Shown piece after piece: positions 1,490-29,325 of a stretch of DNA of 32,286 bases (position 1 is the stretch's first letter; the number at the start of each line of letters is the position of its first letter). Source of the stretch: a virus. Made by a program: the position numbers and the translations under genes. Location of the stretch: positions 1 through 32,286 of IMG/VR virus record IMGVR_UViG_3300036766_000465, one strand, 5' to 3'. Below the pieces are notes generated by a model. The model saw only the letters and a list, made by a program, of their open reading frames with translations. It searched no databases and was not told the origin of the DNA.

Positions 1490-1915
1490 GTGCCTGCTCT
1501 CGCCAACAAACGTCACGAATTGTTCGCCCAGCAGGTGGTGAGCGGCAAATCGGGGACGCAGGCGTGGCTTGCGGTGAATCCCTCGGCTACTCCCAAGGCT
1601 GCTAGCGTCACTGCGGTGCGGACGCTAGCCAACGCTAGTGTGGCTGCGCGCATCCATGAACTCCTGCACCGCAGCGAGGATGAGGCCTGGGATACTGCGG
1701 AGGGTATCCGCGAACGGTCACGTCAGGCCGTGGAGATGGCAATGGCGCAGAAGCGCCCGGACCGTGCAGCGCCGCACCTATCGTTGCTGGCCCGCCGTCA
1801 CCCCGAGTTCTCCGAGAAGCACGACGTGAACATGACCCTGCGGGCGCAGATGCTCGCGCTGGTGGCTGGGCTGAGCGAGGACGAGCTACGGGCAGCCAAG
1901 GAGCGGCTGGTATGA
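1490..1915 (+). CDS. terS: Terminase small subunit (putative)
   Basis: 141 residues from a GTG, preceded by GTGAGG at 7 bases. The N-terminal ~60 residues have the small-terminase pattern: a 'KRHELFAQQVVSGKSGTQAW' helix, a short NPSATPKAAS turn, then a second helix with repeated VRTLAN/VAARIHELL, as in HTH-containing DNA-recognition domains of Terminase_2-like proteins. The rest is helical and charged, suiting oligomerisation. It should recognise the packaging site and load DNA on the large terminase, which lies one gene downstream. Length and position fit; the call is from pattern memory, not a profile search. Confidence 0.75.
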   Translation: MPALANKRHELFAQQVVSGKSGTQAWLAVNPSATPKAASVTAVRTLANASVAARIHELLHRSEDEAWDTAEGIRERSRQAVEMAMAQKRPDRAAPHLSLLARRHPEFSEKHDVNMTLRAQMLALVAGLSEDELRAAKERLV

Positions 1916-2514
1916 CGACGCAACTAGAAGTGCGCCCGCGACGCGTGAACGTCCGGGCGCATGGCACACAGGAACAGGAGTTCCCGATGCGAGAGCAGAG
2001 TATCAGCGCGATCACTACAGTGCTGATGACTGCGGCAGAGGCGCGGGCGTCCACTGACCGGCTCAAGCACGCCATCGAGGACACCGCGCTACTGGTGGCC
2101 GATTTGCACGACCGTGAGGCGTGGCGGGCGCTCGGTTTCAAGTCATGGGCGGCCTACGTCGATGCCGAGTTCCCGTTCAAGCGCCGCGAATCCTACGAGC
2201 TGATTGACCAGGGGCGGGCGATGCGGCTGCTGTCGCAAGAGTTGGGCCGTCCGGTGGAAGTGACAATTCGGCAGGCGAGGCTGCTCAAGGCGGCACCCCG
2301 ATCTGTGCAACATGTTGCACAACTTGTTGCTGGCGGCACGGAGCCTGCCGCGGCGATTCAGCACGTCACGCAGCACGAGTTGCCGGTGACGCGCAGTCGT
2401 TTTGACGATGGTTACGGCTCGCTGCCTGGTGACGATGGCGAGGCTGCAACAGCATTCCGCTGCCCCAAGTGCGGCTGGACAGCGCCCGTCGTGGACGAAT
2501 GGCAGGGCGCGTGA
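1912..2514 (+). CDS. HTH DNA-binding protein with C-terminal zinc ribbon (ParB/KorB-like core)
   Basis: 200 residues between the two terminase genes. Residues ~70-110 (W..LGF.SW..YVDAEFPFKRRESYELID) match a helix-turn-helix block seen in plasmid/phage ParB-like and replication-associated proteins, followed by helices that carry HVAQLV and AAAIQHV repeats. A zinc knuckle (Cys184-x2-Cys187 in CPKCGW) closes the protein. ATG 1912 overlaps the terS stop (ATGA) with AAGGAG 8 bases upstream. ATG 1987, preceded by AGGAG at 6 bases, is a good alternative that would drop a low-complexity 25-residue leader. It could help site recognition in packaging or act as a regulator; its location favours the former. 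It contains an 18-bp palindrome. Confidence 0.65.
   Translation: MTTQLEVRPRRVNVRAHGTQEQEFPMREQSISAITTVLMTAAEARASTDRLKHAIEDTALLVADLHDREAWRALGFKSWAAYVDAEFPFKRRESYELIDQGRAMRLLSQELGRPVEVTIRQARLLKAAPRSVQHVAQLVAGGTEPAAAIQHVTQHELPVTRSRFDDGYGSLPGDDGEAATAFRCPKCGWTAPVVDEWQGA
2304..2321. repeat. Perfect 18-bp palindrome inside the HTH gene
   Basis: TGTGCAACATGTTGCACA reads the same on both strands, and a further TTGTTGC half-site follows within 10 bases. It lies within the coding sequence of the putative DNA-binding protein. It could be an operator or recognition site for that protein. Roughly 0.1 such palindrome is expected by chance in a window this size, so it is suggestive only. Confidence 0.4.
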
Positions 2515-3914
2515 CCACCACCCTCACTCGCGAGCGGGCGCGTGACATGCTGATGGTGGACGAGTTGTGCCGCCGCTCGTTCCCTGACTTCCTGGACTAC
2601 GTGAAGGTGCGTGGTGATGACCCGCTGAACCCGGCGATCACGGCGTGGGAGCCGTGGCCGCATCTGGTCGAGCGCAACGAGGCATGGGCACGGGGCGAGT
2701 CCGAGGTGATCCTGAAGGACCGCCAGCTCGGGTTTACGTGGGACTTTGCGGCGTTCGTTGACTGGTGTGCGCGCAACGGTAAGGCGTGCGGCCTGATCTC
2801 CAAAGGGCAGGACGAGGCGCGGGCGCTGCTCGGGCGCGTCAAGTTCGTCGAGATGCACCTGCCGGAGTGGATGCAGGTCGGGGCCGTGTTCCGTGCGGAT
2901 TCGGCTGAGTACCCGTCGGGCGGGAGCGTGCAGGTGTTCCCCTCGACGGAGGACGCTGGTGTTTCCTATACCTTCCAGCTCGTCGGCATGGACGAGGCCG
3001 CGTTCCACCCGTACGGCGGCGCGAACCATTCCGCGATCCGTCCCACGATCTCAGCAGGCGGCCAGATCCTCATCTTCTCGACGGCTGACCCGCAACTCGG
3101 CCCCTCTGGGTTTTTTCACGACATCTACTGGGCGAGCAAGCGCGGGGAGACGCCGTATCATGCCGTGTTCGTTCCGTGGCACCGCCGTCCGGGCCGAGAC
3201 GCCACATGGCTGGCGCGTGAGCGGTCGGCGTATGCAGGGCGGCTGGAAGAGTTCGACGCCTACTACGCGGACACGGATGCGCAGGCGTTCACTGGCCGCT
3301 CTGGGCTGGTGTACCCACAGTTCAACGAGGTGCGGCACGTCAAGGTGGCGCGCATCCCGATCACTGCCTGTACGCGCATTGTCGCGGGCGTGGACTGGGG
3401 TGGTGGCGACCCGACGGCGGTAGTCGTGCTGGGAATGGACAACCGCCAGGACGTGCACCAGTACGCCGAGTTCTACCGGCGAGGCCCGGTGAGCGTGGAG
3501 GACATCGTAGCCTTCTTGAGCCGTTATCCCGTGCGCCAGGTCAGGTGCGGCGCCGACGAGCCGGTGGCGATAGCGACGCTGGCGAAGGCGTTGCCGAGCA
3601 TGGACGTGGGCGTGGCAGACACGCGGCGGGGTGAGGGATTGGGGCTTGTCGCCTTCCTGCTCGACCATGACCGCCTCACCATCGAGCCCGACAACAAAGC
3701 CAGCATCGCGGAGTTCCCCGGCTATCGCTGGGCGGAGCGCACCGACCCGAACGACAAGACCCGATATGCCACGAAGACCCCGGTTGACCACCACGCAGAC
3801 GCGATGGATGGACGGCGGTACGCGTGCGCGGAGTTGCTGGCGTTTATGCTTGACCAGCCGCACCTCCCCGTCCACACCATGAGCGGCCGGCCGTTGAGCC
3901 GCAAGGCGTCGTAG
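2511..3914 (+). CDS. terL: Terminase large subunit
   Basis: 467 residues from GTG 2511, which overlaps the upstream stop (GTGA); ATG 2499 and GTG 2469 are in-frame alternatives. It is the ATP-driven packaging motor with a DNA-cutting domain. The ATPase half shows a Walker A variant at 69-77 (KDRQLGFTW), in which the usual P-loop lysine is replaced by Phe and a Lys sits at the start of the loop, as in the known KxRQxGxS/T terminase variants. Walker B is at 157-162 (hydrophobic strand then Asp161-Glu162), with the coupling motif FST at 189-191. The nuclease half shows Asp295 (GVDWGGGDPT), Asp349 and Asp430 (HHADAMDGRRY), the RNase H-like acidic triad. Length is typical. Confidence 0.93.
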   Translation: MTTTLTRERARDMLMVDELCRRSFPDFLDYVKVRGDDPLNPAITAWEPWPHLVERNEAWARGESEVILKDRQLGFTWDFAAFVDWCARNGKACGLISKGQDEARALLGRVKFVEMHLPEWMQVGAVFRADSAEYPSGGSVQVFPSTEDAGVSYTFQLVGMDEAAFHPYGGANHSAIRPTISAGGQILIFSTADPQLGPSGFFHDIYWASKRGETPYHAVFVPWHRRPGRDATWLARERSAYAGRLEEFDAYYADTDAQAFTGRSGLVYPQFNEVRHVKVARIPITACTRIVAGVDWGGGDPTAVVVLGMDNRQDVHQYAEFYRRGPVSVEDIVAFLSRYPVRQVRCGADEPVAIATLAKALPSMDVGVADTRRGEGLGLVAFLLDHDRLTIEPDNKASIAEFPGYRWAERTDPNDKTRYATKTPVDHHADAMDGRRYACAELLAFMLDQPHLPVHTMSGRPLSRKAS

Positions 3915-4281: not shown

Positions 4282-4612
4282 TAGGCGTTGTCCGACATGC
4301 ACGCTGTTTCCGGACATGACGGGGCGCGATCTCCGACATTGGAGAAGTTGCGTACCCAGACGCTATTGGCCGACGAAGTGGGAGCTACTCGCCCCCCGGA
4401 TGCAGGTGGTGGGCGAGACCACCACCGGGCAACCCGTGTTGGAAGTGCTCCCGGACGCGCCGCGATACCGTGTCACGGAGGCAGGGACGCTCAGCCCCGT
4501 GTACGACTGCGAGTGCGGCTACACTGTCCCTGTGGCCTCGAAGAATCCTGCGGCGGCATTGCGGATGCACAGGATGAGCGCGAAGCAGCACCGGGAGCCA
4601 GTGAGTGCCTGA
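4271..4612 (+). CDS. Zinc-finger protein of unknown function
   Basis: 113 residues from GTG 4271. The longer upstream reading of this frame to 4172 lacks any motif and overlaps the micro-ORF, so I chose the later start, which has a weak purine-rich site (AACGGA) 7 bases upstream. The N-terminus is Cys7-x2-Cys10-x12-His23-x3-Cys27, a C2HC zinc finger. Near the C-terminus a second set (Cys-x-Cys followed by two histidines in RMHRMSAKQH) looks like a C2H2 finger. Between them is a beta-rich linker. The end overlaps the portal start by 8 bases. A nucleic-acid or portal/terminase-binding adaptor is possible; no family is recognised. Confidence 0.6.
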   Translation: MRTDRRCPTCTLFPDMTGRDLRHWRSCVPRRYWPTKWELLAPRMQVVGETTTGQPVLEVLPDAPRYRVTEAGTLSPVYDCECGYTVPVASKNPAAALRMHRMSAKQHREPVSA

Positions 4613-6764
4613 GACGACTCCTGACGCCAAGGCCATCCTCTCCCGCCTCCGCAACACCCGGCAGGCGTATGCGCGGGTGCAGGCGGTTATGCAGGTGCGG
4701 CGTGCGCTGATCGCCCGCGTCATCACGGGCAACGTCGGCGGCAACGGCACCGGCACCAACGTGATCGCCCCCTTCGACTCCTCCGCGATGGTGATCCGTT
4801 CCATGCTGGGCGAGCCGTCGAAGGCCGTGCAGCACTACGCCGGCCGCCTCTCCTCCAATCAGCCGACGATCACCGTCACCCCGATCACCACCCACCCTGA
4901 CCTCACCAAGCGCCTTGACCGTGTGGCCGGGGAGCAGGAGCGGCTCGACGCCGAACTGTGGGCGGAGGCCTGCGCCGTCGGTGGAGGGCGTGGCGAGCAT
5001 CAGCGCGCGGCGGAGGCGATGGTCGTCGGTGGCGCAGCCTACCTGCTCGTGATGCCGCGTGACCTCGTCTTCGGGTTGCCCGACCGCATCTACCACTCAG
5101 ACATCACCGACGACGAGGTGGCGGCGCTGCGTGCCTCAGGGAAACTCTCGCCGCAGCAGGTCCCACACCCGAAGACCGGCCAGTTGGTCTATGCGGAGGC
5201 AGGTGACGTGTGGGCGGCGCGCCGCAAGGAATCGCTGAAGGCGCAGAAGGTCAGCGGTCGCGGGCTGTTCATGGTGCGGTCATTCCCACGTGACATGGTG
5301 CTGCGTGAGAAGGACGCCGCGGGCATGAAGTGGTGGGCCGCCACCGAGACCGTGCCGCAGTCCACATTCGGGGCCGGCTCGGACTGGGCGCGTGCGGCCG
5401 CGCGGCGGGACAGCACCTTCACCGGCGACGCCGACCGTTATCAGCTCATGCTCAACGACCGCGGCCAGGTGACTGGGGGCATCACCACTGGCGGGCCGCC
5501 GGGCGCCACGACGAACTCACAGGCCTTCACCTTCATCACCTACGTTGACCGTGAGGAGATCGTGTACCTCGTCGCCGGTCAGAACGATGTGGAAGGCCGC
5601 GAGGTCTGGCGCGGCAAGCATGGCTGCACGGTACAGGGCCAGCCCGAGTGCCCGGCCATCGAGATCCCCTGCATTCGTGGCGACATCGACACGCCAGACT
5701 ACGAGTTCCTCAGTCCGCTCGACCCGCTCTTCGCCGTGATCCCCAACGTCAACCAGTTCCTCACCATGCGGTCGAACATCGCCGTCTACAACGCCACCCC
5801 GCGCTTTGTGTCCGAGAACTCTACCGGGTCGCCGCTGCGCGGTGACGATGGCGAGCCGGTGAATGTGCAGTCGGCACCCACTCCCGGCCTCAACCCCGAG
5901 GAGATCGCCGCCTACCCCGGCACGGTCAAGCAGCTCACCATCGATGCTTCAGACCTTGACCGGGCCATTGAGTTGATGTTCACCCGTATCGACGGCTACA
6001 TGCCAGCGCCGGTCACCCAAGGCGCGGCGGGTGCGAGCGCGCCGGCGTGGCAGGTGCACCAACTGATCCAGCAGGCGCAGGAGAACCTCCGCCAGCCCGC
6101 CGACAACCTCGCCTACGGCATCCACCAGGCGCTCCTGAGGATGCACGGCTGGCTGCGGACGCTGGATATGGACGTGTACTTCTGGGCGGCGCCCGGGCAC
6201 CGCAAGGACAAGCGCGAGACGCGGGGGCTGATCGAGTTTGACCCGAAGGACATCACCGACAGCATCAGCGTCAAGATCGAGTTGGACGCGCCAGAAGACA
6301 GGATCGTCATCGACCAGGTGTGGCAGGCCAAGTTGAAGGACGGCTTGTGCACACGGGAGCAATATTTCGAGATGACCGGCGCACAGGACGCGCGCCAGTC
6401 CACCATCGATTCGTACGCCCAGATGGTCGCGGACTCGCTGCTGCTGCTTCCCCAGCAGGGCCAGCCGCAGCTCGGCCCTGTACTGGAGATGGTCGCCAAG
6501 CGCGTGATGGGCCGCCTCGCCGTCGAGTTGCCGCAGTGGTCGCCCAACGCGGCGCGTGCTACCGCGCAGGACATGGCGATGGGGGCACGTGCTCAGGTCG
6601 CGGGCCAGATGCAGCCGCCCACAGGCATGACGCCGCCCGCTCCGGTGCAGCCGGCGGCGGCTGGCACTGGCAACCTCAGCCTTGCCAACGCGGCGGGTGC
6701 GGCGGTGCCTGGTGTCGGCATCGCGCCGACGCTGGCGGGAGCCACAGGAGGGCCACCGGCGTGA
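4605..6764 (+). CDS. Portal protein (putative)
   Basis: 719 residues from a GTG inside the end of the preceding gene. It should form the dodecameric ring at one capsid vertex through which DNA enters and leaves. Support: its position just after the large terminase, a length close to large podoviral portals such as P22, an N-terminal helical and alpha/beta part ending in AGRLSSNQPTITVTP, and a long helix-rich section (LDRAIELMFTRIDGYMPAPVTQGAAGASAPAWQVHQLIQQAQENL) resembling the portal stem and crown. The C-terminal ~70 residues are Pro/Ala/Gly-rich and probably disordered. No competing portal candidate exists in the window. The identification is by context and general pattern rather than a conserved catalytic motif. 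Confidence 0.8.
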   Translation: MPETTPDAKAILSRLRNTRQAYARVQAVMQVRRALIARVITGNVGGNGTGTNVIAPFDSSAMVIRSMLGEPSKAVQHYAGRLSSNQPTITVTPITTHPDLTKRLDRVAGEQERLDAELWAEACAVGGGRGEHQRAAEAMVVGGAAYLLVMPRDLVFGLPDRIYHSDITDDEVAALRASGKLSPQQVPHPKTGQLVYAEAGDVWAARRKESLKAQKVSGRGLFMVRSFPRDMVLREKDAAGMKWWAATETVPQSTFGAGSDWARAAARRDSTFTGDADRYQLMLNDRGQVTGGITTGGPPGATTNSQAFTFITYVDREEIVYLVAGQNDVEGREVWRGKHGCTVQGQPECPAIEIPCIRGDIDTPDYEFLSPLDPLFAVIPNVNQFLTMRSNIAVYNATPRFVSENSTGSPLRGDDGEPVNVQSAPTPGLNPEEIAAYPGTVKQLTIDASDLDRAIELMFTRIDGYMPAPVTQGAAGASAPAWQVHQLIQQAQENLRQPADNLAYGIHQALLRMHGWLRTLDMDVYFWAAPGHRKDKRETRGLIEFDPKDITDSISVKIELDAPEDRIVIDQVWQAKLKDGLCTREQYFEMTGAQDARQSTIDSYAQMVADSLLLLPQQGQPQLGPVLEMVAKRVMGRLAVELPQWSPNAARATAQDMAMGARAQVAGQMQPPTGMTPPAPVQPAAAGTGNLSLANAAGAAVPGVGIAPTLAGATGGPPA

Positions 6765-7042: not shown

Positions 7043-8968
7043 ATGTCGTGGCCAGATGATCTAACTGTTGCCGGCATAATCTTTCGGCGACAACCGGATG
7101 GCACATATCGGAGCGACGCTGGCGGCACGATGTCCGCCGCGGTGGCCCAACAGACTAACGGTCCTGATGGAGGCTCCTCAACACCCACGATTCGGCAACT
7201 TGCTGACGGCCAGTATTACCAGCTCGTGGGAGACCAGTGGAAACTCATAGGCGGGCAGCCGCAGGAGTCCGCGGCGGCAGTGAAATATCAGCGCGTCGGC
7301 ACCACTGGCCTGCTCTATGGCTCGGACGGCAACTACTACGTCGCTGGTGAGCCGTACACGCAGCCTGGCGACCACCTGGGCGACCCCTCGACACAGCAGC
7401 AGGCAGCGCCACGGTTCGCCACCGCTCAGGAAATTGCCGCCGGCGGCGTCGGTGCCGGTGGTTCAGCGTCCGGTGGCGACCGCAGCAACCCCGACCTACA
7501 GGCCGAGCAGCAGTTCACGCGTGAACGCGACGCGTTGGCGGCGCAGCAAGACGCAGCCGCCCGCCAGCAGCAGGCGCAGCAGCAACAGGCGCAACTCGAC
7601 GAGGTAATCCGTAACAACCGCGTGCAGGCCGCGCAGTCCGACGCCAACCTGCAATTCCTCTACGACAAGTTCGCGGTGGAGACTGACCAGGGCAACCGTG
7701 CGGCGTCGCTCGCGACGCAGCAGGCGATCTGGGGCGCGCAGCGTGACATCCAGCAGATCAACTACCAGTACGGTCAGTTGCAGCAGCAGGCCGCGCAGTT
7801 CAACGCGCAACAGGAAATGGCGGTCGGCATCGAGAACCAGCGCCGCACCGAGGCGGCAGCCGAACGCCGGCGTGCGTTGGCGGAGAGCATCGGTGTCACC
7901 GCGCAGGACGCGGGTTCACGTGGCAAACTCGCCGCTACGTTGCTTGCCAACCCCGGCCTCGGCAGCATGGACGCGGGACTCACGGGTGGTGGCAACTTCT
8001 TTACTGACGAGAGCCTGACTCCGCTCACCGACCTGCTAGGGCAGCGCGCCGATGCCGCCAAGTCGCCCAACTTCCTCAAGTTCACCCCGATCAGTGCACC
8101 GGCAGCGCCCACGATCGCGGTGCCGACATTCGGCGCGGCGGGTGCGCCGATGGCTGCTCCTGCGAGGCCGGTATCCACTGTGGGCGCTGGCGGAAGCATT
8201 CCCGGTGGGCAGCCGCCACCGCCAGCCGCCGCACCATCAGCGGCGACTGCCCCGCCCGCAGGCACTCCCACCGCGGCGCAGATCGCGGCAGGGGCCGATC
8301 CTGCCAGCCTCGTATCACCCGACTGGACACCGGGACCGGTGTGGCAGCCGACACCGGGCTTCGCGAGTGGTGGCATCGCGTCGGGTGCGTACATGGGCGA
8401 CGAGCAGGGAGCCGAACTGCACATCCCGCTGGGCCCGGGCGAGGCGCTGGTGATCCCACACGCTCAGGTCAAGAACTTCCTGCGATCGGCGTCCGCGGGC
8501 ACAGTGGCGTCCCTGCCCGGCATGAAGGACGGCGGCCATGTCAAGTCGCGCAAGCAGGTGGGGTTGCTGCTCTCGAAGGGCAGCCCGCTCACTGCGGCGC
8601 AGCAGGCGAAACTGCGGCGCGAACTGCACTCAGGCGCGGTCACCGTCGCGGGCATGGCGGATGGCGGGCTGTTCAGTGAAGGTTCCATTTTCGGCAACAG
8701 TCAGCTCGGCGACACCACGACCGCACGCAACTTCCTCGCCGAGGCGTTGAAGCGCGCGCTTGCAGGCACGCCGTGGGGCCAGTCGGGCCGCGCACCGACG
8801 CCGGTAGAGGTCTCGGCGCCGGGGACAGATCAGCTGGTACAGGAACTCAGTGGTAGCCTCTCGGCGCTGGGCACGGGGATTCCGAGCGACTTCTTCCTGC
8901 GTCGCGCGCGCGCGCTCACGCCGCGCGGGATCAGCGAAGGAGTGGGCGGGCTACGGAGGACGGCATGA
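7043..8968 (+). CDS. Gln-rich coiled-coil virion protein with tape-measure-like C-terminal motif
   Basis: 641 residues. The N-terminus carries three DGxYY-like beta hairpins (residues ~18-105). Residues ~150-283 form a long Gln/Ala-rich coiled coil, then comes a Pro/Ala-rich linker (~345-430). At ~437-470 there is FASGGIAS...GDEQGAELHIPLGPGEALVIPHAQ, which resembles the GG...GE.GPE...ViP signature common near the C-terminus of tail tape-measure proteins. Two further short DGG copies follow (MKDGGHV, MADGGLF). It sits between portal and a 1441-aa protein, so it could be an internal or ejection protein that forms a DNA conduit. No large hydrophobic segment is evident. The specific role is inference. 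Confidence 0.6.
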   Translation: MSWPDDLTVAGIIFRRQPDGTYRSDAGGTMSAAVAQQTNGPDGGSSTPTIRQLADGQYYQLVGDQWKLIGGQPQESAAAVKYQRVGTTGLLYGSDGNYYVAGEPYTQPGDHLGDPSTQQQAAPRFATAQEIAAGGVGAGGSASGGDRSNPDLQAEQQFTRERDALAAQQDAAARQQQAQQQQAQLDEVIRNNRVQAAQSDANLQFLYDKFAVETDQGNRAASLATQQAIWGAQRDIQQINYQYGQLQQQAAQFNAQQEMAVGIENQRRTEAAAERRRALAESIGVTAQDAGSRGKLAATLLANPGLGSMDAGLTGGGNFFTDESLTPLTDLLGQRADAAKSPNFLKFTPISAPAAPTIAVPTFGAAGAPMAAPARPVSTVGAGGSIPGGQPPPPAAAPSAATAPPAGTPTAAQIAAGADPASLVSPDWTPGPVWQPTPGFASGGIASGAYMGDEQGAELHIPLGPGEALVIPHAQVKNFLRSASAGTVASLPGMKDGGHVKSRKQVGLLLSKGSPLTAAQQAKLRRELHSGAVTVAGMADGGLFSEGSIFGNSQLGDTTTARNFLAEALKRALAGTPWGQSGRAPTPVEVSAPGTDQLVQELSGSLSALGTGIPSDFFLRRARALTPRGISEGVGGLRRTA

Positions 8969-9180
8969 CGACAATGCGGTTCGTGGGGATCGTGCTATGC
9001 GTGATCGTTGGCGCCGTTGCGACGCCGCTGGCGTTGTACTTCGTATCGCGTGCCGTAGCGTACGGCTTGGCGTTTGTGCTCACTCCACTGTGGTGGGGGG
9101 GTGCTTGGGTCGTGCTATATGTGTACGGCGCGCTCGCGGCGGTGGCGTTCGTCCGCTGGGTGCGGACTGGTAGCATCTGA
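8965..9180 (+). CDS. Small two-helix membrane protein
   Basis: 71 residues; the ATG overlaps the preceding stop (ATGA), and its own stop shares a base with the next ATG (TGATG). Two hydrophobic stretches (residues ~6-28 and ~35-62, separated only by TPLWWGG) make it an integral membrane protein with a short basic tail (RWVRTGSI). It is locked between two large virion-module genes and is translationally coupled to both, unlike the lysis genes 20 kb away. It could be a holin-like or injection-pore subunit; neither can be decided from sequence. Confidence 0.65.
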   Translation: MTTMRFVGIVLCVIVGAVATPLALYFVSRAVAYGLAFVLTPLWWGGAWVVLYVYGALAAVAFVRWVRTGSI

Positions 9181-12100
9181 TGGTCACGAGCGAGCCGCGT
9201 AGTTGGGCCGAGCGCCGCCAGCAGGAGCAAGAGACGCTGTTTCCTGAGCTGCGGCTGGCGAGTCCTGACATGGTGTCGCGGGTGGATGGCTACCGCGTGC
9301 AGCAGGGACGCGCGCCGTCGGCCATGACCATGCAGACCACCGCGCTCGCGGCTGCGATTGCACGAGCGAGGGCCGGACAGCGTGACCCCAACGGTGGCGC
9401 GTTCCTCTCGTCTGTGGCGGACGGCGGCGAGGACAACGCGCCGAATGTCCTGCCGTGGCTGCCCTCTGCCGCGCCTGACCCGTACTCACGTGAGGCACTG
9501 TCCAGCGTGCCGATGCCGCCTGACCAGTCGTACTACGGCGCGAGTGCGAGCCTCGGCGAGACCGCTGGCCGCGCCTATCGCGGAATCACGGCGACCGCCT
9601 TCCCCGATGCGAACTCGGTGGTGCAGGAACTGGGCCGCCCCATCAACTACCTGCCCGTTGGTGCCGGTTCCTTGCCACTACGAATCGCCAGGGGCGTCGC
9701 TGGCGGCCTTGGCGCGCGGTTCGCGGGGGAAGCGGCGTACCGGGGGCTAGAGGGCGCCCCTGAGCCACTGCGGGCCGCTGGTGCCATCGGAGCAGGGCTG
9801 CTGGGCGGTGGAGTCGGTATCGCGGCGGCTGGACGCCTGCCCGCCGCTGGTCGCTACGCGCGTGACGTGGGCCGCGCGCTCAAGGAGTCTCCGCCGCTGC
9901 GCGCGGGCGAGGCCACGGCCACCGCGAATCTGATCCCCGGTGTCGGCCCGGATGCGATCCAGTCTCGCGCCATCCCTGTGCCTGCCGAGGAGCGCACGTA
10001 CCTCAAGCGCCTGTTCAACGTGGACGTGCCCGAGGCCGGGCTGACGGCTGGCGACAAGTTCACGGGGGCGGTGCGTGCCATGTTCGGCGGCGTGCGTGAG
10101 GACGCGATCGCCACGCCGATCATGAAGATGATCGAGTCCTCGAAGCCGCGCATCCAGAACCAGGCCGCGCGCATGGGGTCCGTGGTGGAGGCCGTCGCCA
10201 ACGCCGCCTTCAAGCGTGACGAGCTGGGGCGGATAGCGAGTCTGCCCGGCAACCCGACGCTGCAAACCGTGGCCGCGCGGCTGCCCGAGTTCGACCCGTA
10301 CCTGACGCCGCACCAGCGCAGCGCGATCGAGGCCATCCAGAACGAGATCGCCGACTATCGCCCGCTGGTGGACGAGGCGGGAATCGAGATCGGGAGCAGG
10401 CGGGACATCGTGGAGGGTGGGTTCTACCTGCCTCGTGGCAAGGTCGTCAGCGTGCGGGGACGGTCGACGCAGGCGCCGGGTGGGCGGGCCGGTGGCGGGT
10501 CGGCGGGCTATCGCAAGGAAGCCGTGTTCGACTCGATGGAGCAGGGCATCGACGCCGGGTACCGCTACGAGCCGCTGGCATCGGCGGTCTCGCGGCACGT
10601 CGAACAGACTGGTGGCGATGCGGTGCGCAAGTACGCCGAGACGTTGTTCAAGGAGGCCACGGGCGAGGGTGGCGAGTTGATCGGCCGCTCGCAGCACCAG
10701 CGCCTGCTCGACGCCAGTCCGGGACTCGCTGCGAAGGTGGAGGGCGTCCGCAAGTCGCTCGCATCGCTGCGCGGCACGGCTGCTCGCATCGACGACCGCT
10801 TCCACGCGATTGTGGGTCGGGCCACGAATCGTCCGGCTCCGCAGGAGCGGATCGTGCTCACGAGCAGCATCATCGACTCCGACCGGCTGCCGGCGATGGC
10901 TGACCTCACCTCCGCGATTGCCGCGAAGCGCGCTGCGCTGACGCGGGACGGCGCGGGGGCGATCCGGCGTAACGCCGCGAACACGAAGGCCATTGCCGAA
11001 CTCGGCGAGCTTGAAGCGCTGGCTGACGTGCGTGGAGCCATCGACCAGGCCGGCGGTGATGTGACCGCTGCGCTCGATGCTATCGACAAGATGAACACCG
11101 ACCTTGGGCGGGCTGCGCAGGCGCGCTCGAACACCTCAACGCGGATGGGCCTGCTCAACGAGAGCAATGCCGCCCGTAACCGGAGGGTGCGCGCCGGGCA
11201 GTCGGACCGCCTGACGAGGGCCACGCGTGTCGAGGGCGGCGGCGACGACATGGGCATCCTCGCCAGTCACTCCAACACGCTGAATCAAATTGTGGAGTCG
11301 ATGGGCCTCGACGTGCGCGTGCAGCGCGCCCTCGACTCCGCGGACAGCGGAGACCTCGATGCGCTCGCCTCCGCGCTGCGCAACCTGCGCGTGGGTGCGA
11401 ATGCCGTGGGGAAGCGCGGCGTGAACTACGGCAAGAACCGCGCCGAGTTGCTGACTGTCATCGACGAGGCGACCCGGACGCTGAAGGCGGCGATGCCCGA
11501 GTGGACGAGCGCAAAGGAGCGCGCGGCGCAGACCCCGCTGTTCGCGGGCCAGATCGACTTGCCGGGGCTGCGTGGCACGTCCTTCCCCGCCGAGGTGGCG
11601 GCGGCCGCCAATCGCCGCCTCGACCTGCAGAAGCCGCCCACCGGACGTGGTACTGCGGCCGTGCGGGCGATGCAGGCCGTGAACGCGCTGCTACGCATGA
11701 CCGGATCCGCGCTCGACATCTCGGGCACGGCGTTGCAGGGCCTGCTCGGCGTGGCGCTCGACCCGCGCGCCTATGGCGCCGCGCTCAAGACCTCGGTGCG
11801 GGGCTGGTGGGACCCGGACTCGCTCGGCGCCTACTTCCACGACTTCGACCAGCGGGCGCAGCAGGCCGGCAAGCCCACCTCGAAGGACTGGGCGGCGGTG
11901 GGGCAGCGCATCGGCTCCAACCTCACTGAGTACACCGGCGAGGGGCTGCCGGATGCCATCCGCCGCGCCTACGAGGGCAGCATCCCAGGCACCGGACGCC
12001 TCGTGAAAGGCGGCCTCAACCCCGCGCGTGGCGCCAACCGCCAGTTCGGGTTCTTCGGCGACGTGCTGCGCAACGAGCTCAGCGACACTGCCTACGACAT

Positions 12101-13505
12101 CGCGCAGGGGGCGGGCAAGCTGGGCGGGGACTCGCGCGCCGTCATGGCCGACATCGCGCAGGGCTCGAATCGCATGACCGGGTGGAGCACGCGCCGCTTC
12201 GGTGGCGACTTGGGCGAGCTCGCGCTGTTTGCGCCGCGCTACTTCCAGGCGAACATCGAGACGCTGGTGGACGCGGTGAAGGGGTTGCGTCCAGGCGCCT
12301 CGATGTCGCAGGCGCAGGCGCGCAACGCCCTGCTGCGGCTGATCGGCGTTGGCACGGCGCTCACGGTCGCCGTCAACGAGGCCCGCGGCAAGGACACCGA
12401 CTTCCGGCTGCTCATCAACGGCCGCCGTAACCCCAACTTCGTGCGCATGCTCGACGTGGGCGGACAGGACATCAGCGTCTTCGGCATCTACGACCGTCTG
12501 GTGGGGCTGGTCGCGCTGGCAGCCACGGGCGAGTACAGCCGCGCTGCCCGTTCGTTCATCAATGCGCCGATCGTCGCGCGTGCCTGGGACATCATCGAAG
12601 GCAAGGACGCCATCGGTCAGCCGGTCCGTGACGACCCCCAGCAGTTCGCAGGCTACCTGCTGCGTTCGGTCGCGCCCTACGCGGGCCAGTCCTACGCCGA
12701 GGGCGCGCAGCAGCTCGCGGCCCGCGACGTGGGCGCGGGCGCGGCTACCATCGGCGTGGGGGCCACCGGCCTGCGTGGCTCGCCACAGAGCCTCGGTGAG
12801 CGGGTGGCGGCCGGCGAGTACGGCGACCTCAGCGCTCCCGACCAGCTCAAGGCCCATCGTGCGCAGTCGTGGCAGGACGTGGGCAAGGCCTTCGGGACGG
12901 CCACACTGGGCGGCGCCACCTCCTACGGCGCATGGCGGCAGCAGCAGGTGGACGCGCTCGCCGGGTCGTTGCGCAAGGCCGGGCTGTCCGAGGCGCAGGC
13001 GATGGAGAACGCCGAGACCGCCATCGACAAGCAGCCCGTGTCCAAGATGTACGAGCAGGTGCGCAATGGCCGTGAGGACGCGTGGGCGGTGCAGCACCCG
13101 CACGACGCCGCGGCGTTGCTGGACAAGGAATCGCGGCTCCCCGCCAGCGAGCGCACGTTCCGCCCCACCGCGAAGGTGCGGGCCTACATCGAAGCCATGC
13201 GGCGCACCAAGCCGCAGGAGCCGGGTGTGCTGGACAAACTCAAGGGCATGGTCCCCGGCATGGAGGAGGGCGGCTATCTCAAGGATGGGGTCGTGACGCC
13301 GCTCACGGGACAGCAGTGGCGAGTGGTGCGGCGGGTCACTCGAGAGCCGGTGCGTGACGAGCGCGGGGTGATCGTGCGGTCGGTGGACTCTGCGGAGGAG
13401 CCAGTGCGCAAGCGGCGCGTGGTCAAGCAGACCGAGCATCACCAGGACGGCCCCTTGCGGGGGAAGATCGCGCGCGTGGTCGAGACGGTCGAGGAGAGCG
13501 ACTGA
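9180..13505 (+). CDS. 1441-aa polyvalent/LPD38-like protein, candidate internal virion (ejection) protein
   Basis: The largest gene in the window, 1441 residues. Around residues 165-235 a Gly/Ala-rich amphipathic stretch (GVAGGLGARFAGEAAY...GAIGAGLLGGGVGIAAAG) looks membrane-active. Around 375-425 there is LTPHQRSAIEAIQNEIADYRPLVDEAGIEI...YLPRG, a block typical of phage large polyvalent proteins. Residues ~600-780 are helical and Arg-rich. Residues ~830-1190 (NRMTGWSTRRFGG..LALFAPRYFQANIETL, then a hydrophobic helical region) resemble the LPD38 domain. The C-terminus (~1365-1441) carries MEEGGYLKDG and a highly charged RRVVKQTEHH tail. Proteins of this type are packaged and delivered with DNA. 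No protease or lysozyme motif is seen. Domain names are from memory of patterns. Confidence 0.6.
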   Translation: MVTSEPRSWAERRQQEQETLFPELRLASPDMVSRVDGYRVQQGRAPSAMTMQTTALAAAIARARAGQRDPNGGAFLSSVADGGEDNAPNVLPWLPSAAPDPYSREALSSVPMPPDQSYYGASASLGETAGRAYRGITATAFPDANSVVQELGRPINYLPVGAGSLPLRIARGVAGGLGARFAGEAAYRGLEGAPEPLRAAGAIGAGLLGGGVGIAAAGRLPAAGRYARDVGRALKESPPLRAGEATATANLIPGVGPDAIQSRAIPVPAEERTYLKRLFNVDVPEAGLTAGDKFTGAVRAMFGGVREDAIATPIMKMIESSKPRIQNQAARMGSVVEAVANAAFKRDELGRIASLPGNPTLQTVAARLPEFDPYLTPHQRSAIEAIQNEIADYRPLVDEAGIEIGSRRDIVEGGFYLPRGKVVSVRGRSTQAPGGRAGGGSAGYRKEAVFDSMEQGIDAGYRYEPLASAVSRHVEQTGGDAVRKYAETLFKEATGEGGELIGRSQHQRLLDASPGLAAKVEGVRKSLASLRGTAARIDDRFHAIVGRATNRPAPQERIVLTSSIIDSDRLPAMADLTSAIAAKRAALTRDGAGAIRRNAANTKAIAELGELEALADVRGAIDQAGGDVTAALDAIDKMNTDLGRAAQARSNTSTRMGLLNESNAARNRRVRAGQSDRLTRATRVEGGGDDMGILASHSNTLNQIVESMGLDVRVQRALDSADSGDLDALASALRNLRVGANAVGKRGVNYGKNRAELLTVIDEATRTLKAAMPEWTSAKERAAQTPLFAGQIDLPGLRGTSFPAEVAAAANRRLDLQKPPTGRGTAAVRAMQAVNALLRMTGSALDISGTALQGLLGVALDPRAYGAALKTSVRGWWDPDSLGAYFHDFDQRAQQAGKPTSKDWAAVGQRIGSNLTEYTGEGLPDAIRRAYEGSIPGTGRLVKGGLNPARGANRQFGFFGDVLRNELSDTAYDIAQGAGKLGGDSRAVMADIAQGSNRMTGWSTRRFGGDLGELALFAPRYFQANIETLVDAVKGLRPGASMSQAQARNALLRLIGVGTALTVAVNEARGKDTDFRLLINGRRNPNFVRMLDVGGQDISVFGIYDRLVGLVALAATGEYSRAARSFINAPIVARAWDIIEGKDAIGQPVRDDPQQFAGYLLRSVAPYAGQSYAEGAQQLAARDVGAGAATIGVGATGLRGSPQSLGERVAAGEYGDLSAPDQLKAHRAQSWQDVGKAFGTATLGGATSYGAWRQQQVDALAGSLRKAGLSEAQAMENAETAIDKQPVSKMYEQVRNGREDAWAVQHPHDAAALLDKESRLPASERTFRPTAKVRAYIEAMRRTKPQEPGVLDKLKGMVPGMEEGGYLKDGVVTPLTGQQWRVVRRVTREPVRDERGVIVRSVDSAEEPVRKRRVVKQTEHHQDGPLRGKIARVVETVEESD

Positions 13506-19127: not shown

Positions 19128-19255
19128 CGCCTAGACACAGTGAGACCGGGCCAAGCGCCGACAGCGCCGCCCCTTCCATCCATCTCGTTTGGCGAGGTGG
19201 GCGGGATGGGCGGCTTTTCTGCGTCCCCGGCGAACTGTGGAGAGTGAGGTTCCAG
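19128..19255 (+). promoter_or_regulatory. Structured leader B, upstream of scaffold
   Basis: 128 bases, almost the same length as leader A. It carries GACACAGTGAGACCG (19134-19148), matching leader A at 13 of 15 bases, then five variable bases, AGC and GCCG as in leader A, with ACTAGC just upstream in both. The second half holds a terminator-like hairpin (separate entry), and the leader ends in GAGG 6 bases before the scaffold ATG. It may regulate expression of the capsid operon as RNA or hold a phage-specific promoter. Confidence 0.4.
19166..19220 (+). terminator. Terminator-like hairpin in the scaffold leader
   Basis: Outer stem GCCGCCC (19166-19172) with GGGCGGC (19208-19214), inner stem CCATCTCG (19180-19187) with CGAGGTGG (19193-19200, one G-U pair) and loop TTTGG, followed by TTTTCT (19215-19220). 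This looks like an intrinsic terminator with an imperfect middle. It lies between the promoter candidate and the scaffold gene, so it may separate the upstream operon, act as an attenuator, or protect the 5' end of the capsid message. Confidence 0.55.
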
Positions 19256-20143
19256 ATGGTGCAGGCGCAGGTCGCAGCCGATCCCACCGCAGACGCCACA
19301 CAGGCCGATCCCAACGCATCCGCAGCCGATCCCGCAGGGGGTCAGGCGCCGGGTGACGTACAGGGTCAGGCCGGCGCTGCGGGTACCGAGTCGGGGCAAG
19401 CCCCGGACGGCGGGGGTACGGGTGCAGAGGCGCGGGCGCCGCTTTCGTTGGCTGATCTCTCTGATGACGATCTGATCGCCCAGTTGCGGGAACGCAAGAA
19501 CGGCGACGGGTTAAGTCTCGAAGACCGGCTGCGCAAGAGTGGAGCGGACCAGGCCATCGCACGGCAGCGTGCGGAGGCGGGCAAGGTCGAGAACGTCCAG
19601 CGGCGCACGGCGCGATTCCTGCAAACGCATGGGATCGACCCCGCCGACGCGAGCCGGGAGGAGTTGGGCGAGTTGAACGCCCTCTCCGCGCTGGCAGAGC
19701 AGGACGCGCTCGGCCGCATCGGGCGGGCATGGGTACAGGCGACGGCTGACGAGTTCAGCGTCCTTGACCGCACGCTGCTCGAAGACTCGTTGGCGGCGGC
19801 CACGGACGACCCGAGCGGCATCGATGCCCTCGCGTCGCGGATGTGGATCGCGGCGCGCGAGGCAACCCGTCTGAAGACGCTTGCTGAATCCTCGCTCAAG
19901 GACGTGCCCGAAGGATCGCAGTTGCGTGCGGAGATCAACGCCGAAGCGCAGCGGCTCGCGGACGCCGAACTGTCGGCCCGTGCGCTGGCTGCCAGCCGTC
20001 CTGACTCGCCGCCCACCGCGCCCATCGGAGCACCGCCGTCATCGAACCTCGAACGCTACCGCTCCATGAGCACTGAAGAGGCCGCGAGACTGCCAGACGC
20101 AGACTTCGCGGACTACAAGCGTGTCCTCATGGGAGTGAGCTAA
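19256..20143 (+). CDS. Head scaffolding protein (putative)
   Basis: 295 residues from ATG 19256, which has GAGG 6 bases upstream; GTG 19244 is a poorer alternative. The first ~75 residues are low-complexity Ala/Gly/Asp/Gln (disordered). The middle is acidic and helical (LSLADLSDDDLIAQLRERKN..., ALAEQDALGRIGRAWVQATADEFSVLDRTLLEDSL). Near the C-terminus, after a Pro/Ala linker, is ERYRSMSTEEAARLPDADFADYKRVLM, a short helical end of the type that binds capsid subunits. This architecture, plus position directly before the capsid gene, is typical of phage scaffolds, which guide shell assembly and then leave the prohead. Confidence 0.75.
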   Translation: MVQAQVAADPTADATQADPNASAADPAGGQAPGDVQGQAGAAGTESGQAPDGGGTGAEARAPLSLADLSDDDLIAQLRERKNGDGLSLEDRLRKSGADQAIARQRAEAGKVENVQRRTARFLQTHGIDPADASREELGELNALSALAEQDALGRIGRAWVQATADEFSVLDRTLLEDSLAAATDDPSGIDALASRMWIAAREATRLKTLAESSLKDVPEGSQLRAEINAEAQRLADAELSARALAASRPDSPPTAPIGAPPSSNLERYRSMSTEEAARLPDADFADYKRVLMGVS

Positions 20144-20160: not shown

Positions 20161-21036
20161 ATGGCTCAGTCAGCATCAACCGTCCAGTCTGATGTCAGTC
20201 AGGTCTGGGCCGCCGAACTGTTGCGAGCGCGGGACAAACTGCTCTCGTTCGCGCAGGGGTGCAACCGCACCTACGAAGCTCGCGTGATGCGCGGTGGCGA
20301 CACCGTGCGCATCAACACGGTCGGTGACATCACCGTCAACTCAACACATCTGCGCGCGGGCGCGGACATGACGATTCAAAACCTGCGCACCACCCCGCAG
20401 ACGCTCGTGATGGACTCGGAAGACGACTTCCTGTTCTACCTCGACGACGTGGACAGTGTGCAGGCGGTCTCGGAGATCATGCCGGAGTCCATGCGTCGCG
20501 CGGCCTACAAACTGCGCGACACGATGGACTCGTACATCGCCACCACGATGGCTGCCGGCGTGGCGACCGCCAACGTACTGGCGGCGCGCACCGTCGGCTC
20601 CGGCGCCGGTGACTCGGACGCCTTTGAGCTGGTAGTGGACATGGGCGTGCAGCTCGACGTGAACAACGCGCCGATGGAGAACCGCTGGTTGTTCGTCCCA
20701 CCGTGGTTTGCGGGCACGCTGCTGAAGGACCCGCGGCGCACGTCCTTTGGCACTACGGAGAACCTGCGCGCTTACGGCTCGGCCTACATCGGCCGCTCCG
20801 TCGGCGGCCTGGAAATCTTCGTGAGCAACAACGTCCCGGTCTCCGGCCTCGCCTACACGCTGCTCGCCGGCGACAAAGACGCGACTACGCTCGCGGAGCA
20901 GATCAACAAGTACGAGACGAACCGCCATCCACTGGCGTTCGGTGACATCCACAAGGGCCTGCACGTCTACGGCGCCAAGGTCTTGCGCCCGGACGAGCTG
21001 GTGAAGTGCGCTGTAACCCAGAGCACGGACGTATAG
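20161..21036 (+). CDS. Major capsid protein (HK97-fold, putative)
   Basis: 291 residues, ATG preceded by AGGA and a purine-rich AAAGGGAATAGG. The sequence has the alpha/beta mix of a compact HK97-fold coat protein: an early DVSQVWAAELLRARDKLLSFAQGCN helix, a beta-rich GDTVRINTVGDITVN segment, a spine-like helix (MPESMRRAAYKLRDTMDSYIATTMAAG), and an A-domain-like NRWLFVPPWFAGTLLKD...GLEIFVSNNVPVSG stretch, which is characteristic of several phage coat families. It lies directly after the scaffold and before a decoration-type protein. No N-terminal protease delta domain is obvious, so scaffold removal without capsid cleavage is possible. Confidence 0.88.
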   Translation: MAQSASTVQSDVSQVWAAELLRARDKLLSFAQGCNRTYEARVMRGGDTVRINTVGDITVNSTHLRAGADMTIQNLRTTPQTLVMDSEDDFLFYLDDVDSVQAVSEIMPESMRRAAYKLRDTMDSYIATTMAAGVATANVLAARTVGSGAGDSDAFELVVDMGVQLDVNNAPMENRWLFVPPWFAGTLLKDPRRTSFGTTENLRAYGSAYIGRSVGGLEIFVSNNVPVSGLAYTLLAGDKDATTLAEQINKYETNRHPLAFGDIHKGLHVYGAKVLRPDELVKCAVTQSTDV

Positions 21037-24207: not shown

Positions 24208-25515
24208 ATGACGACGCGTGCAGCCCTCATCACCTCCGTTGCCAAGCGCCTCGGCGCGATCACGGGCAACGTCGGCACGAACGCGGCCACCAGCGCCGTG
24301 CTGCCCGAATTGATCAACACCACGGGCGACGACAACGCCTACGACGGGCACCGCCTGATCTTCCCGGCCGCCGCCAACGAAGCCTCAAAGCAGACCATCA
24401 TCAGCGGCTGGGTAGACCTCACGGGGGCGGCCACCTTCGCATCGCGCACCGCCACGGCCAGCGAGCCGTACATCCTGCTCAGTCGCGCTGACTACACGCT
24501 GGGCGAGTTCCGGGCGGCGCTCACAGAGGCGCTGACACACTCCAAGCGGTCGTACCGCTACGTGATCCCGGCCATCCCCGGCGAGCACTTCTATAACCTC
24601 GCCGCGCTGGACTGGCTGGCGGGGGCCGGTGACGTGGATGCGGTGTACCTCTCGGGCTCGCCGAACCTGCTGCACAACGAGGACTATGGTACCTGGCAAC
24701 AGGGAGCGGATGCCGCTCCTGATGGCTGGACGCTGGCGGGCTCAGGGGCGACCATCGCCCGTTCCACAGCGTCACAGCGCGGCGGCTATGCGGTCACGGT
24801 CACGCGGGTGGGGAATGACTGCACCCTCACGCAAAACCTGCCGCCAGCGCTCGTACAGTACCTCACGCGTGGCGGTGGCACGCTGCCCATCCTGCGGGCG
24901 GGGCAGTGGGTGACCGCCAGCGTCGCCAGCCGGGCGCGCGTCGGTATCACGAGCACCGCGGCAGGCGTGACCACGGTCACCTACAGCAGCTACCACACCG
25001 GCGGCAGCGTCCCCGAGTGGCTGGAAGTCTCGCTGCAACTCACCGCCGCGATGACTGCGCTCGGCATCGTCGGCGCGGTGGGTACGGGCGACACCGCAGC
25101 CACCTTCTCGGGCGCCGTGCTGACCACAGGCGACGCGGCGATCAACGACACGCTCAAGCACTACGGGTCGGGCGCCTACCGCGAGCAGCGCGTCCCCAAG
25201 CTCGTCCGCAATGTCGGCGGTGCGCCGGTGGTCGAGTTGCAGAGCGCCCCCACTGGCGGTCAGGTCATCGTCTACTGCCGCCGCCAGTTCGCCGACGTGG
25301 CGACCGACTCAGAGATCATCGACGACCAGTACGCGCGCGTGCTTGAAGCCGGGCTGGCGGTCTTCCTGCTACAGAACATCAAGCCGGGCGTAGACCGCAC
25401 ACGCTATGACCGCGTACTGAAGGAAGAGACGCCGATCTGGACGCGCGCGCTTTCCACGCTCACCGACCTCCCCGTGCCCGCTCCACTGGAAAGGGTTGAG
25501 GTGCTTCCAGCATGA
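24208..25515 (+). CDS. Connector-like protein with inserted carbohydrate-binding-like domain
   Basis: 435 residues from an ATG directly after the preceding stop. The N-terminus (MTTRAALITSVAKRLG..) and C-terminus (VIVYCRRQFADVATDSEIIDDQYARVLEAGLAVFLLQNIKPGVDRTRYDRVLKEETPIWTRALSTL) form a helical core like head-to-tail connector or adaptor proteins. Between them, residues ~150-310 contain NLLHNEDYGTWQQGADAAPDGWTLAGSGATIARS...GGYAVTVTRVGNDCTLTQNLP, which fits a galactose-binding/CBM-type beta sandwich placed as an insertion. That would put a sugar-binding lobe on the neck of the particle. Domain assignments are by motif resemblance. Confidence 0.55.
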   Translation: MTTRAALITSVAKRLGAITGNVGTNAATSAVLPELINTTGDDNAYDGHRLIFPAAANEASKQTIISGWVDLTGAATFASRTATASEPYILLSRADYTLGEFRAALTEALTHSKRSYRYVIPAIPGEHFYNLAALDWLAGAGDVDAVYLSGSPNLLHNEDYGTWQQGADAAPDGWTLAGSGATIARSTASQRGGYAVTVTRVGNDCTLTQNLPPALVQYLTRGGGTLPILRAGQWVTASVASRARVGITSTAAGVTTVTYSSYHTGGSVPEWLEVSLQLTAAMTALGIVGAVGTGDTAATFSGAVLTTGDAAINDTLKHYGSGAYREQRVPKLVRNVGGAPVVELQSAPTGGQVIVYCRRQFADVATDSEIIDDQYARVLEAGLAVFLLQNIKPGVDRTRYDRVLKEETPIWTRALSTLTDLPVPAPLERVEVLPA

Positions 25516-29323: not shown

Positions 29324-29325
29324 CT

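What the first reader, a model, noticed from the sequence alone, without database searches (positions are those of the whole stretch)
9180..13505. 1441-aa LPD38-like protein between portal and capsid
Its size, membrane-active-looking N-terminal stretch, long helical middle, LPD38-type region and charged tail fit a protein packaged with DNA and injected. It sits in a module with a tape-measure-like coiled-coil protein and a small membrane protein, all translationally coupled, which could together form a DNA-delivery conduit in a phage without a visible tail tube.
Basis: partly seen in the sequence, partly recalled or inferred. Interest (0 to 1): 0.5.

Follow-up and report, generated by a model that had tools for sequence, protein, structure and literature searches.

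The report
Giant, likely phage DNA-ejection protein
A very large protein of an uncultured phage, encoded next to its portal, probably travels inside the virus particle and is pushed into the bacterium with the DNA, as known ejection proteins are; the new points are how unlike known ones its sequence is and a small front-end module that related phages carry either fused to it or as a separate gene.

Summary
The 1441-codon gene at 9180-13505 is real and coupled to its neighbours. In 17 viral records (window included) a giant of 882-1806 aa follows a portal and a Gln/Ala-rich 'cc' protein; in 15 of them a homologous TerL precedes. The giants are modular: a 68-residue N-terminal cap, a variable middle and a helical C-terminal core. 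The cap is fused in 9 of 17 records, a separate small ORF just upstream in 5, and not found in 3. One relative's cc protein carries a transglycosylase (SLT) domain, as some ejection proteins do. A relative of the core in MW202497.1 lies two genes behind a gene annotated 'phage stabilization protein'. 'LPD38' is not supported by sequence (no Pfam match at E up to 10; profile comparison no better than controls) but is by predicted fold: of 17 BFVD hits at E<=0.001, seven are named 'Large polyvalent protein associated domain', the other ten have no informative name. A virion LPD38 protein is known (JC1 gp69, mass spectrometry). Best reading: an internal virion/ejection protein of the polyvalent-protein kind. 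Not supported: the 71-aa membrane ORF as a conserved conduit part. Not settled: absence of a tail tube. Virion presence is untested.

The parts
9180..13505 (+). giant protein, 1441 aa (P0001)
9180..9383 (+). N-terminal cap module, residues 1-68; fused here, a separate small ORF just upstream of the giant in 5 of 17 records
   Evidence: leave-one-out profile E 4.4e-23 for the window, single hit among its 351 ORFs of 30 aa or more
9774..9830 (+). Gly/Ala-rich weakly hydrophobic stretch, residues 199-217
   Evidence: borderline hydropathy
10002..10835 (+). conserved middle segment, residues about 275-552
   Evidence: blastp to L027 (2.6e-27), L058 (8.2e-28) and, with the N-terminus, L044 (3.1e-39)
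11376..13160 (+). conserved helical C-terminal core, residues about 733-1327
13212..13502 (+). charged C-terminal tail, residues 1345-1441
   Evidence: not part of the aligned core
7043..8968 (+). 641-aa Gln/Ala-rich partner protein ('cc'); homologue in L006 carries an SLT transglycosylase domain
8965..9180 (+). 71-aa membrane ORF with two hydrophobic stretches; no credible counterpart found in relatives
4605..6764 (+). portal protein (by position, size and weak PHROG portal hits in single relatives)
2469..3914 (+). terminase large subunit
   Evidence: PHROG 2, 1.6e-27
19244..20143 (+). 299-aa protein before the capsid gene, scaffold by position (inference)
   Evidence: 61% to L044 homologue
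20161..21036 (+). major capsid protein
   Evidence: PHROG 267 9.6e-51, Pfam P22_CoatProtein 1.5e-9
24208..25515 (+). tail-type protein (by position) with a carbohydrate-binding-module-like jelly roll in its model

Best explanation
The 1441-aa protein is an internal virion (ejection) protein. It is made with portal and capsid proteins, taken into the procapsid (perhaps through its N-terminal cap docking on portal, scaffold or partner), stored in the head, and ejected through the portal ahead of or with the DNA. Its long helical C-terminal core, which looks in predicted fold like LPD-type phage proteins, would unfold, pass the portal and refold in the envelope, with the 7043-8968 protein, as part of the DNA route into the cell. 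The variable middle is where related phages carry extra segments. Shown by computation: gene, coupling, family, synteny, modularity, SLT domain in one relative's partner protein, fold similarity to LPD proteins. Inferred: packaging, ejection, role of the cap, conduit.
For: Order TerL-portal-cc-giant in the 15 records (window included) with a homologous TerL (G013 if its contig is circularly permuted); portal-cc-giant also in G028 and G029. L006 cc homologue: Pfam SLT 9.9e-20; PHROGs with an SLT domain, among them 342 'internal virion protein with endolysin domain' 2.7e-24, behind 669 'endolysin' and 2013 'lytic tail protein'. C-core model against BFVD: 17 hits at E<=0.001, 7 named 'Large polyvalent protein associated domain-containing protein', 9 unnamed, 1 'uncharacterized'. 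The core profile matches the 1582-aa giant of MW202497.1 (hhalign probability 98.4, 9.1e-15), which lies after genes annotated portal, capsid and 'phage stabilization protein'. The virion of podovirus JC1 contains its LPD38 protein gp69, 51 unique peptides (PMC9144972, passages seen; domain confirmed here, 1.1e-34). Ejection proteins vary in size, diverge fast, and some partner proteins carry lysozyme activity (PMC8954989 section 4); here the portal is 72-74% identical to L044 while the giant is about 30-35%.
Against: No virion proteomics. No sequence match to any known ejection protein or to LPD38. No solved structure resembles the core (Foldseek 0 hits at E<=0.001; VIA best Z 4.9). Core model only moderate (pLDDT 69.1, pTM 0.54), TM-scores to the BFVD hits at most 0.47. 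No peptidoglycan-cutting domain was found in the window's own cc or giant; SLT matches 1 of 17 cc proteins tested (16, L044). Single giants gave stray profile hits that point elsewhere: PHROG 938 'endolysin' 2.8e-8 over 63 residues of L012, PHROG 77 SbcC-like 0.0024 in two, PHROG 1272 tape measure 0.0075 in one, Pfam BAR_4 0.0016 in one. Capsid relatives are mostly mycobacteriophages (280 of 367 records), which I recall as long-tailed, and MW202497.1 is itself described as 'Siphoviridae sp.'. Partner and portal of MW202497.1 do not match those of the window.
Confidence: 0.7

Rival explanations
1. It is an injected effector (polyvalent-type) rather than a conduit part: packaged, delivered, and then acting on host defences or metabolism, as DarB-like proteins are thought to.
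For: Fold similarity to LPD proteins; variable middles, with a sub-threshold ART-PolyVal match in L039 (0.09) and a segment shared by L006 and L039 (6e-9); DarB-like annotation of the LPD38 protein JC1 gp69.
Against: No enzymatic domain found in the window protein. The conserved part is the core, which matches no enzyme. This and the best explanation overlap: both are packaged and injected.
Confidence: 0.3
2. It (or the 7043-8968 protein) is the tape measure of a siphovirus-like tail.
For: Length and helical content; capsid of a type shared with phages recalled as long-tailed; one relative's giant matches a tape-measure PHROG at 0.0075; MW202497.1 is described as Siphoviridae; Gly-rich C-terminal motif in the cc protein resembling tape-measure tails (by eye).
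Against: Position before the capsid gene; cap, middle and core blocks with large insertions among relatives; among the 50 BFVD rows listed the only tape measure is rank 48, E 0.093; no tail-tube profile was hit by the 20 window ORFs tested, though few of them hit anything.
Confidence: 0.12
3. It is a head-decoration or scaffold-like morphogenesis protein that does not enter the cell.
For: Gene lies between portal and capsid; the cap could be an assembly tag.
Against: Size up to 1806 aa, fast divergence, SLT domain in a relative's partner, LPD-like fold.
Confidence: 0.1

Closest known systems
LPD38-bearing giant virion proteins of Bcep22-like podoviruses (JC1 gp69)
   Same: giant, among morphogenesis genes; the window core's predicted fold hits LPD proteins; JC1 gp69 is virion-associated and has an LT-like domain
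   Different: three times longer, with further domains (JC1 Table 5; DC1 annotated transglycosylase/helicase/methylase); LPD38 profile hits it (1.1e-34) and not the window protein
T7 gp14/gp15/gp16 and P22 gp7/gp20/gp16 ejection proteins
   Same: small operon of very divergent large proteins, hydrolase domain moving between partners (PMC8954989 section 4; SLT in L006 cc)
   Different: no sequence or solved-structure match; gene before the capsid gene; no conserved gp14-like membrane protein found
Polyvalent proteins (PMC5512222, passages seen)
   Same: multi-module giant in a virion-gene neighbourhood, LPD-like fold, variable middle
   Different: no two disparate catalytic domains found in the window protein
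N4-type virion RNA polymerase (PMC12633501, abstract start seen in listing)
   Same: giant ejected protein with two further ejection proteins
   Different: no polymerase domain found here
Giant hypothetical protein UOF78006.1 of Caudoviricetes sp. MW202497.1
   Same: homologous core, near the stabilisation-protein gene
   Different: portal and preceding gene do not match those of the window; gene lies after the capsid gene; no cap found

Membership tests
LPD38 (PF18857) | match to the Pfam profile | tested here: not met
   no hit for P0001 at E<=10 with JC1 gp69 as positive control 1.1e-34; 0 of 15 records incl. window (whose control genomes also gave none)
LPD38 (PF18857) | profile-profile similarity of the C-core to an LPD38 alignment | tested here: not met
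   hhalign probability 0.1, 0.2, 0.8; best E 0.068 against 0.1-0.79 for four control families
LPD38 (PF18857) | fold of the domain | tested here: inconclusive
   7 of 17 BFVD hits at E<=0.001 named LPD proteins, one named LPD38 at 3.6e-3; model moderate, TM at most 0.47
polyvalent proteins | two or more domains of disparate activity in one chain | tested here: not met
   no enzymatic profile in P0001
polyvalent proteins | encoded near virion genes and packaged | tested here: inconclusive
   position met; packaging not testable
T7/P22-type ejection proteins | located inside the virion and ejected with DNA | not testable with these tools
   needs virion proteomics
T7/P22-type ejection proteins | operon of several divergent internal proteins | tested here: inconclusive
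   cc-giant pair conserved; no conserved third member found
T7/P22-type ejection proteins | peptidoglycan hydrolase domain in one member | tested here: inconclusive
   in L006 cc, not found in window proteins; 1 of 17 cc tested; the review notes that P22 and Sf6 lack it in gp16
siphovirus tape measure | gene between tail tube and distal tail genes | tested here: not met
   lies between portal and capsid genes

The most novel reading that the evidence does not exclude
The 68-residue cap is a portable encapsidation tag for ejection cargo: fused to the giant it loads it in cis; encoded as a separate small protein just upstream it loads the giant in trans. The middle of the giant is then a swappable cargo bay between a loading tag and an LPD-like ejection core, in a phage lineage with almost no relatives among deposited phages.
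Probability: 0.22. Interest if true: 0.65.

Novelty: new variant of a known kind. Interest (0 to 1): 0.42.

Why it matters
How phages load large amounts of foldable protein beside DNA and thread it through a narrow portal is open. A family in which a short module is either fused to or separate from the giant offers a direct test for a loading signal. It also suggests that LPD-type virion proteins reach into lineages that sequence profiles miss, so that the label needs structure, not sequence, at this distance.

Tried and rejected
Direct look-ups with the giant failed: tblastn in 50,697 phage records, single-protein scans of viral and genome contigs, Pfam/PHROGs/NCBIfam. The family came from TerL and portal instead. 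A portal-seeded scan of genome contigs found no relative. The capsid-seeded scan gave four records without a match to the giant. Solved-structure sequence searches with giant, cc, portal and tail profiles and two relatives' middles gave nothing convincing. A lysozyme-like N-terminus of the L044 cc protein, seen by eye, was not confirmed. The idea that 24208-25515 is a P22 gp10-like hub was not supported; its model (pLDDT 65.9) shows a CBM-like jelly roll in residues 151-310, so tail type stays open. ART domains in the middles of L006, L039 and L058 were suspected; only sub-threshold support (L039: ART-PolyVal 0.09; RNA 2'-phosphotransferase 0.14; none for L006 and L058). In one search the record G025 gave no match although blastp finds its giant at 4e-20. 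VIA-align listings did not include any phage ejection protein; this excludes nothing.

Dropped rows: the core alignment A10 and its model use 11 of the 17 giants from viral records; L006, L007, L029, L031, L040 and the near-duplicate L026 were left out, the first five because they did not align over the core to the window by blastp. Confidence in the best explanation was lowered slightly (0.72 to 0.70), and the tape-measure rival raised (0.10 to 0.12), after the stray profile hits and the 'Siphoviridae' label of MW202497.1 were added.

Full report
OBSERVATION. The window is a whole IMG/VR virus record of 32,286 bases, genome completeness unknown, without terminal direct repeats or tRNAs. The ORF 9180-13505 is as described: 1441 aa, ATG start. 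It is not a chance ORF: 100 shuffles of the 66% GC window gave a longest stop-free run of 573 codons, and its codon-position GC is close to that of portal and capsid genes. The start-stop overlaps cc/71-aa/giant/110-aa are real, and GGAGG precedes the 71-aa ORF.

NEIGHBOURS. TerL (2469-3914, PHROG 2, 1.6e-27) and the capsid protein (20161-21036, PHROG 267, 9.6e-51) are clear. The portal (4605-6764) has no profile match itself; the name rests on its place after TerL, its size, its conservation (33-45% to 12 and 17-19% to 3 of 15 aligned relatives; 72-74% to L044) and weak PHROG portal hits in single relatives (7.5e-4 and 0.053). The endolysin is at 29236-30018 (PHROG 1493, 2.2e-16).

FAMILY. 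The giant itself finds nothing in 50,697 phage records, nor do single-protein scans of viral or genome contigs. TerL- and portal-seeded scans gave viral records. Of 29 records searched with P0001 (7, 20, 2; four of them came from the capsid scan, and many are short fragments), 12 match at E<=0.001, two of them (G005, G026) through the N-terminus only. Counting by position too, 17 records including the window hold a giant of 882-1806 aa; G019 and G020 are near-duplicates. In 15 of these a TerL homologous to that of the window is held (36-63% identity) and the order is TerL, portal, cc, giant (for G013 if its contig is circularly permuted). G028 (L044), the closest relative by portal, has in the TerL place an ORF that shares only 40 residues with the window TerL, so the packaging gene seems to have been swapped. 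G029 starts inside the portal. In G006, G007 and G025 portal and cc match those of the window only weakly and are assigned by position. In the seven records where a capsid homologue was found downstream (G013, G016, G018, G023, G026, G028, G029) an ORF of 280-305 aa and then the capsid gene follow the giant; in the window a 5.6-kb stretch of other ORFs intervenes.

HOMOLOGY OF THE GIANTS. In a set of 17 proteins (window, 15 viral records, MW202497.1) the window giant matches 10 of 16 others by blastp at E<=0.01: L027 4e-87, L044 6e-55, L058 2e-50, L032 5e-20, L037, L036, L012, L038, L035 (2e-12 to 2e-14) and L039 (cap, 4e-5). It does not match L006, L007, L029, L031, L040 or L055 directly. These link through intermediates (L007-L029-L031, L040-L032, L055-L038), L006 only through its separate cap and an 85-residue middle segment shared with L039; for L006 the giant is assigned by position. 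Three blocks stand out: cap (1-68), a middle block (about 275-552), a C-core (about 733-1327). Relatives differ by large insertions between cap and core, and L035 and L036 share 94% over their first 287 residues but 41% later, which suggests recombination.

CAP. A profile from 11 caps finds one protein per locus among 9,644 ORFs of at least 30 aa in the loci held. In 9 of 17 records it is the N-terminus of the giant (window, G010, G013, G016, G018, G022, G023, G028, G029). In 5 (G005, G019, G020, G024, G026) it is a separate ORF of 66-175 aa directly upstream of the giant. It was not found in 3 (G006, G007, G025; at E up to 10 in L007, L012, L032) nor in the MW202497.1 locus. Leave-one-out profiles recover each of the 11 in its own locus as the only hit protein, E 8e-10 to 9e-27 (close relatives stayed in the training set for some). 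L029 was not in the training set (2.6e-9). L029 (fused) and L031 (separate) are close relatives (about 40%), so fusion or fission happened within the family. A module found in cis or in trans suggests physical contact with the giant; that it is a loading tag is inference.

PARTNER. The cc proteins that match are related mainly at their C-terminal 100-200 residues and a 60-residue segment near 283-343. The L006 homologue has an SLT transglycosylase domain near its N-terminus (Pfam 9.9e-20; several SLT-bearing PHROGs). SLT matches 1 of 17 cc proteins tested. The review of ejection proteins says that functional domains swap between them and that they diverge fast (PMC8954989, section 4 read).

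MEMBRANE PROTEINS. The 71-aa ORF has two strong hydrophobic stretches (2.58 and 1.88). In the cc-giant gap of 15 other records (four of which have almost no gap) I saw no credible counterpart: the hydrophobic ORFs there (L035, L036, L037, L038, L058) lie in another frame of a long GSGGAT-repeat ORF; blastp against ORFs of seven loci gave none. Nine of those gaps hold small Lys-rich ORFs instead. The giant's own Gly/Ala stretch is borderline: among 17 giants only the window (1.61) and L031 (1.72) reach 1.6 in the first 300 residues, though similar Gly/Ala runs occur at about 120-210 in several.

LPD38. Sequence: no Pfam match at E up to 10 for P0001, while the JC1 gp69 C-terminus gives 1.1e-34 in the same call (83). 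Searching 15 records with PF18857 gave none, but its control genomes also gave none. hhalign of the C-core against six LPD38 sequences gave probability 0.1, 0.2 with a longer LPD38 alignment, and 0.8 with E 0.068 on a trimmed pair, against E 0.1-0.79 for four other families. The best register pairs a hydrophobic helix, an acidic run, 'NF' and 'GG', but is not significant. Fold: the AlphaFold2 model of residues 701-1345 (11 sequences, pLDDT 69.1, pTM 0.54) gives 17 BFVD hits at E<=0.001; 9 have no name at hand, 1 is 'uncharacterized', and 7 are 'Large polyvalent protein associated domain-containing protein' (best 4.2e-6); 'Large polyvalent protein associated domain 38' is rank 23 (3.6e-3). The same model has no PDB hit at E<=0.001 and no VIA Z of 5, so generic helical proteins do not score by default. 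I therefore do not file it as an LPD38 member, but say that its core looks like that group.

OTHER PROFILE HITS. Among the 14 giants scanned, single members gave PHROG 938 'endolysin' (2.8e-8 over 63 residues of L012), PHROG 1272 tape measure (0.0075), Pfam BAR_4 (0.0016) and, in two, PHROG 77 SbcC-like (0.0024). They do not agree with each other; I read them as chance or helical similarity, the first possibly as a shared segment of giant proteins.

FUNCTION. [quoted passage not shown] JC1 gp69 was found in CsCl-purified podovirus particles with 51 unique peptides (PMC9144972, passages). The core profile matches the 1582-aa protein of MW202497.1 (98.4%, 9.1e-15), which lies after genes annotated portal, capsid and phage stabilization protein, the region where P22 keeps its ejection genes (recalled); that record calls itself Siphoviridae. 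Together: internal virion/ejection protein, confidence 0.70. Conduit and effector roles are not separated by the data.

TAIL TYPE. Not settled. None of the 20 window ORFs tested against PHROGs hit a tail-tube or tape-measure family, but few of them hit anything. 24208-25515 is a conserved protein with a CBM-like jelly roll at 151-310 in its model (Z 12.1, rmsd 2.8 over 135 residues); its best BFVD hit A0A1B1ITR8 (1.9e-17) has an accession close to that of the core's best hit A0A1B1ITM0, which may mean one phage with both, not checked.

LITERATURE. 'LPD38' occurs in 8 papers of the library; two were opened and concern the domain (PMC5512222 and PMC9144972), the other six were not opened. Searches for polyvalent/ejection, ejection/metagenome, large polyvalent/podovirus, capsid targeting sequence and DarB-like/podovirus terms listed no paper that by title or abstract start is on this family or on a cap that is fused or separate; apart from the passages and sections named above, the full texts were not read.

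Noticed in passing
L035:4660-7336, L036:5316-8421, L037:8142-10687, L038:7662-10476, L058 (reverse strand); fewer in L006, L027, L039, L040: Relatives carry tiny Lys-rich ORFs (37-100 aa) between cc and giant, candidates for small DNA-binding virion proteins; five also hold a 323-367-aa GSGGAT-type repeat protein and a 134-aa protein.
   Followed up: no
L044:7448-8923: In the closest relative by portal the ORF in the TerL place is unrelated to the window TerL except for about 40 residues; it reads by eye like another terminase type, so the packaging gene may have been swapped.
   Followed up: partly
window 20161-21036: Capsid gene is mosaic: 50% to G013/G029 relatives but 38% to L044, whose portal is the closest (72-74%).
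   Followed up: partly
window 16013-18520: 835-aa protein with tandem Ala/Val/Pro-rich repeats between giant and capsid genes; no blastp match in the seven relatives' loci compared.
   Followed up: no
window 24208-25515: Conserved tail-type protein whose model has a carbohydrate-binding-module-like jelly roll at residues 151-310.
   Followed up: partly
window 1912-2514: Weak PHROG 464 match (0.0011, unknown function) just before TerL.
   Followed up: no
L006:17170-21237, L039:8901-14201, L058:4590-9437: Middles of these giants look by eye like ADP-ribosyltransferase domains; only sub-threshold support, for L039 (0.09).
   Followed up: partly
L012:6858-12278: Residues 494-556 of this giant match PHROG 938 (annotated endolysin, 2185 positions long) at 2.8e-8.
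   Followed up: no
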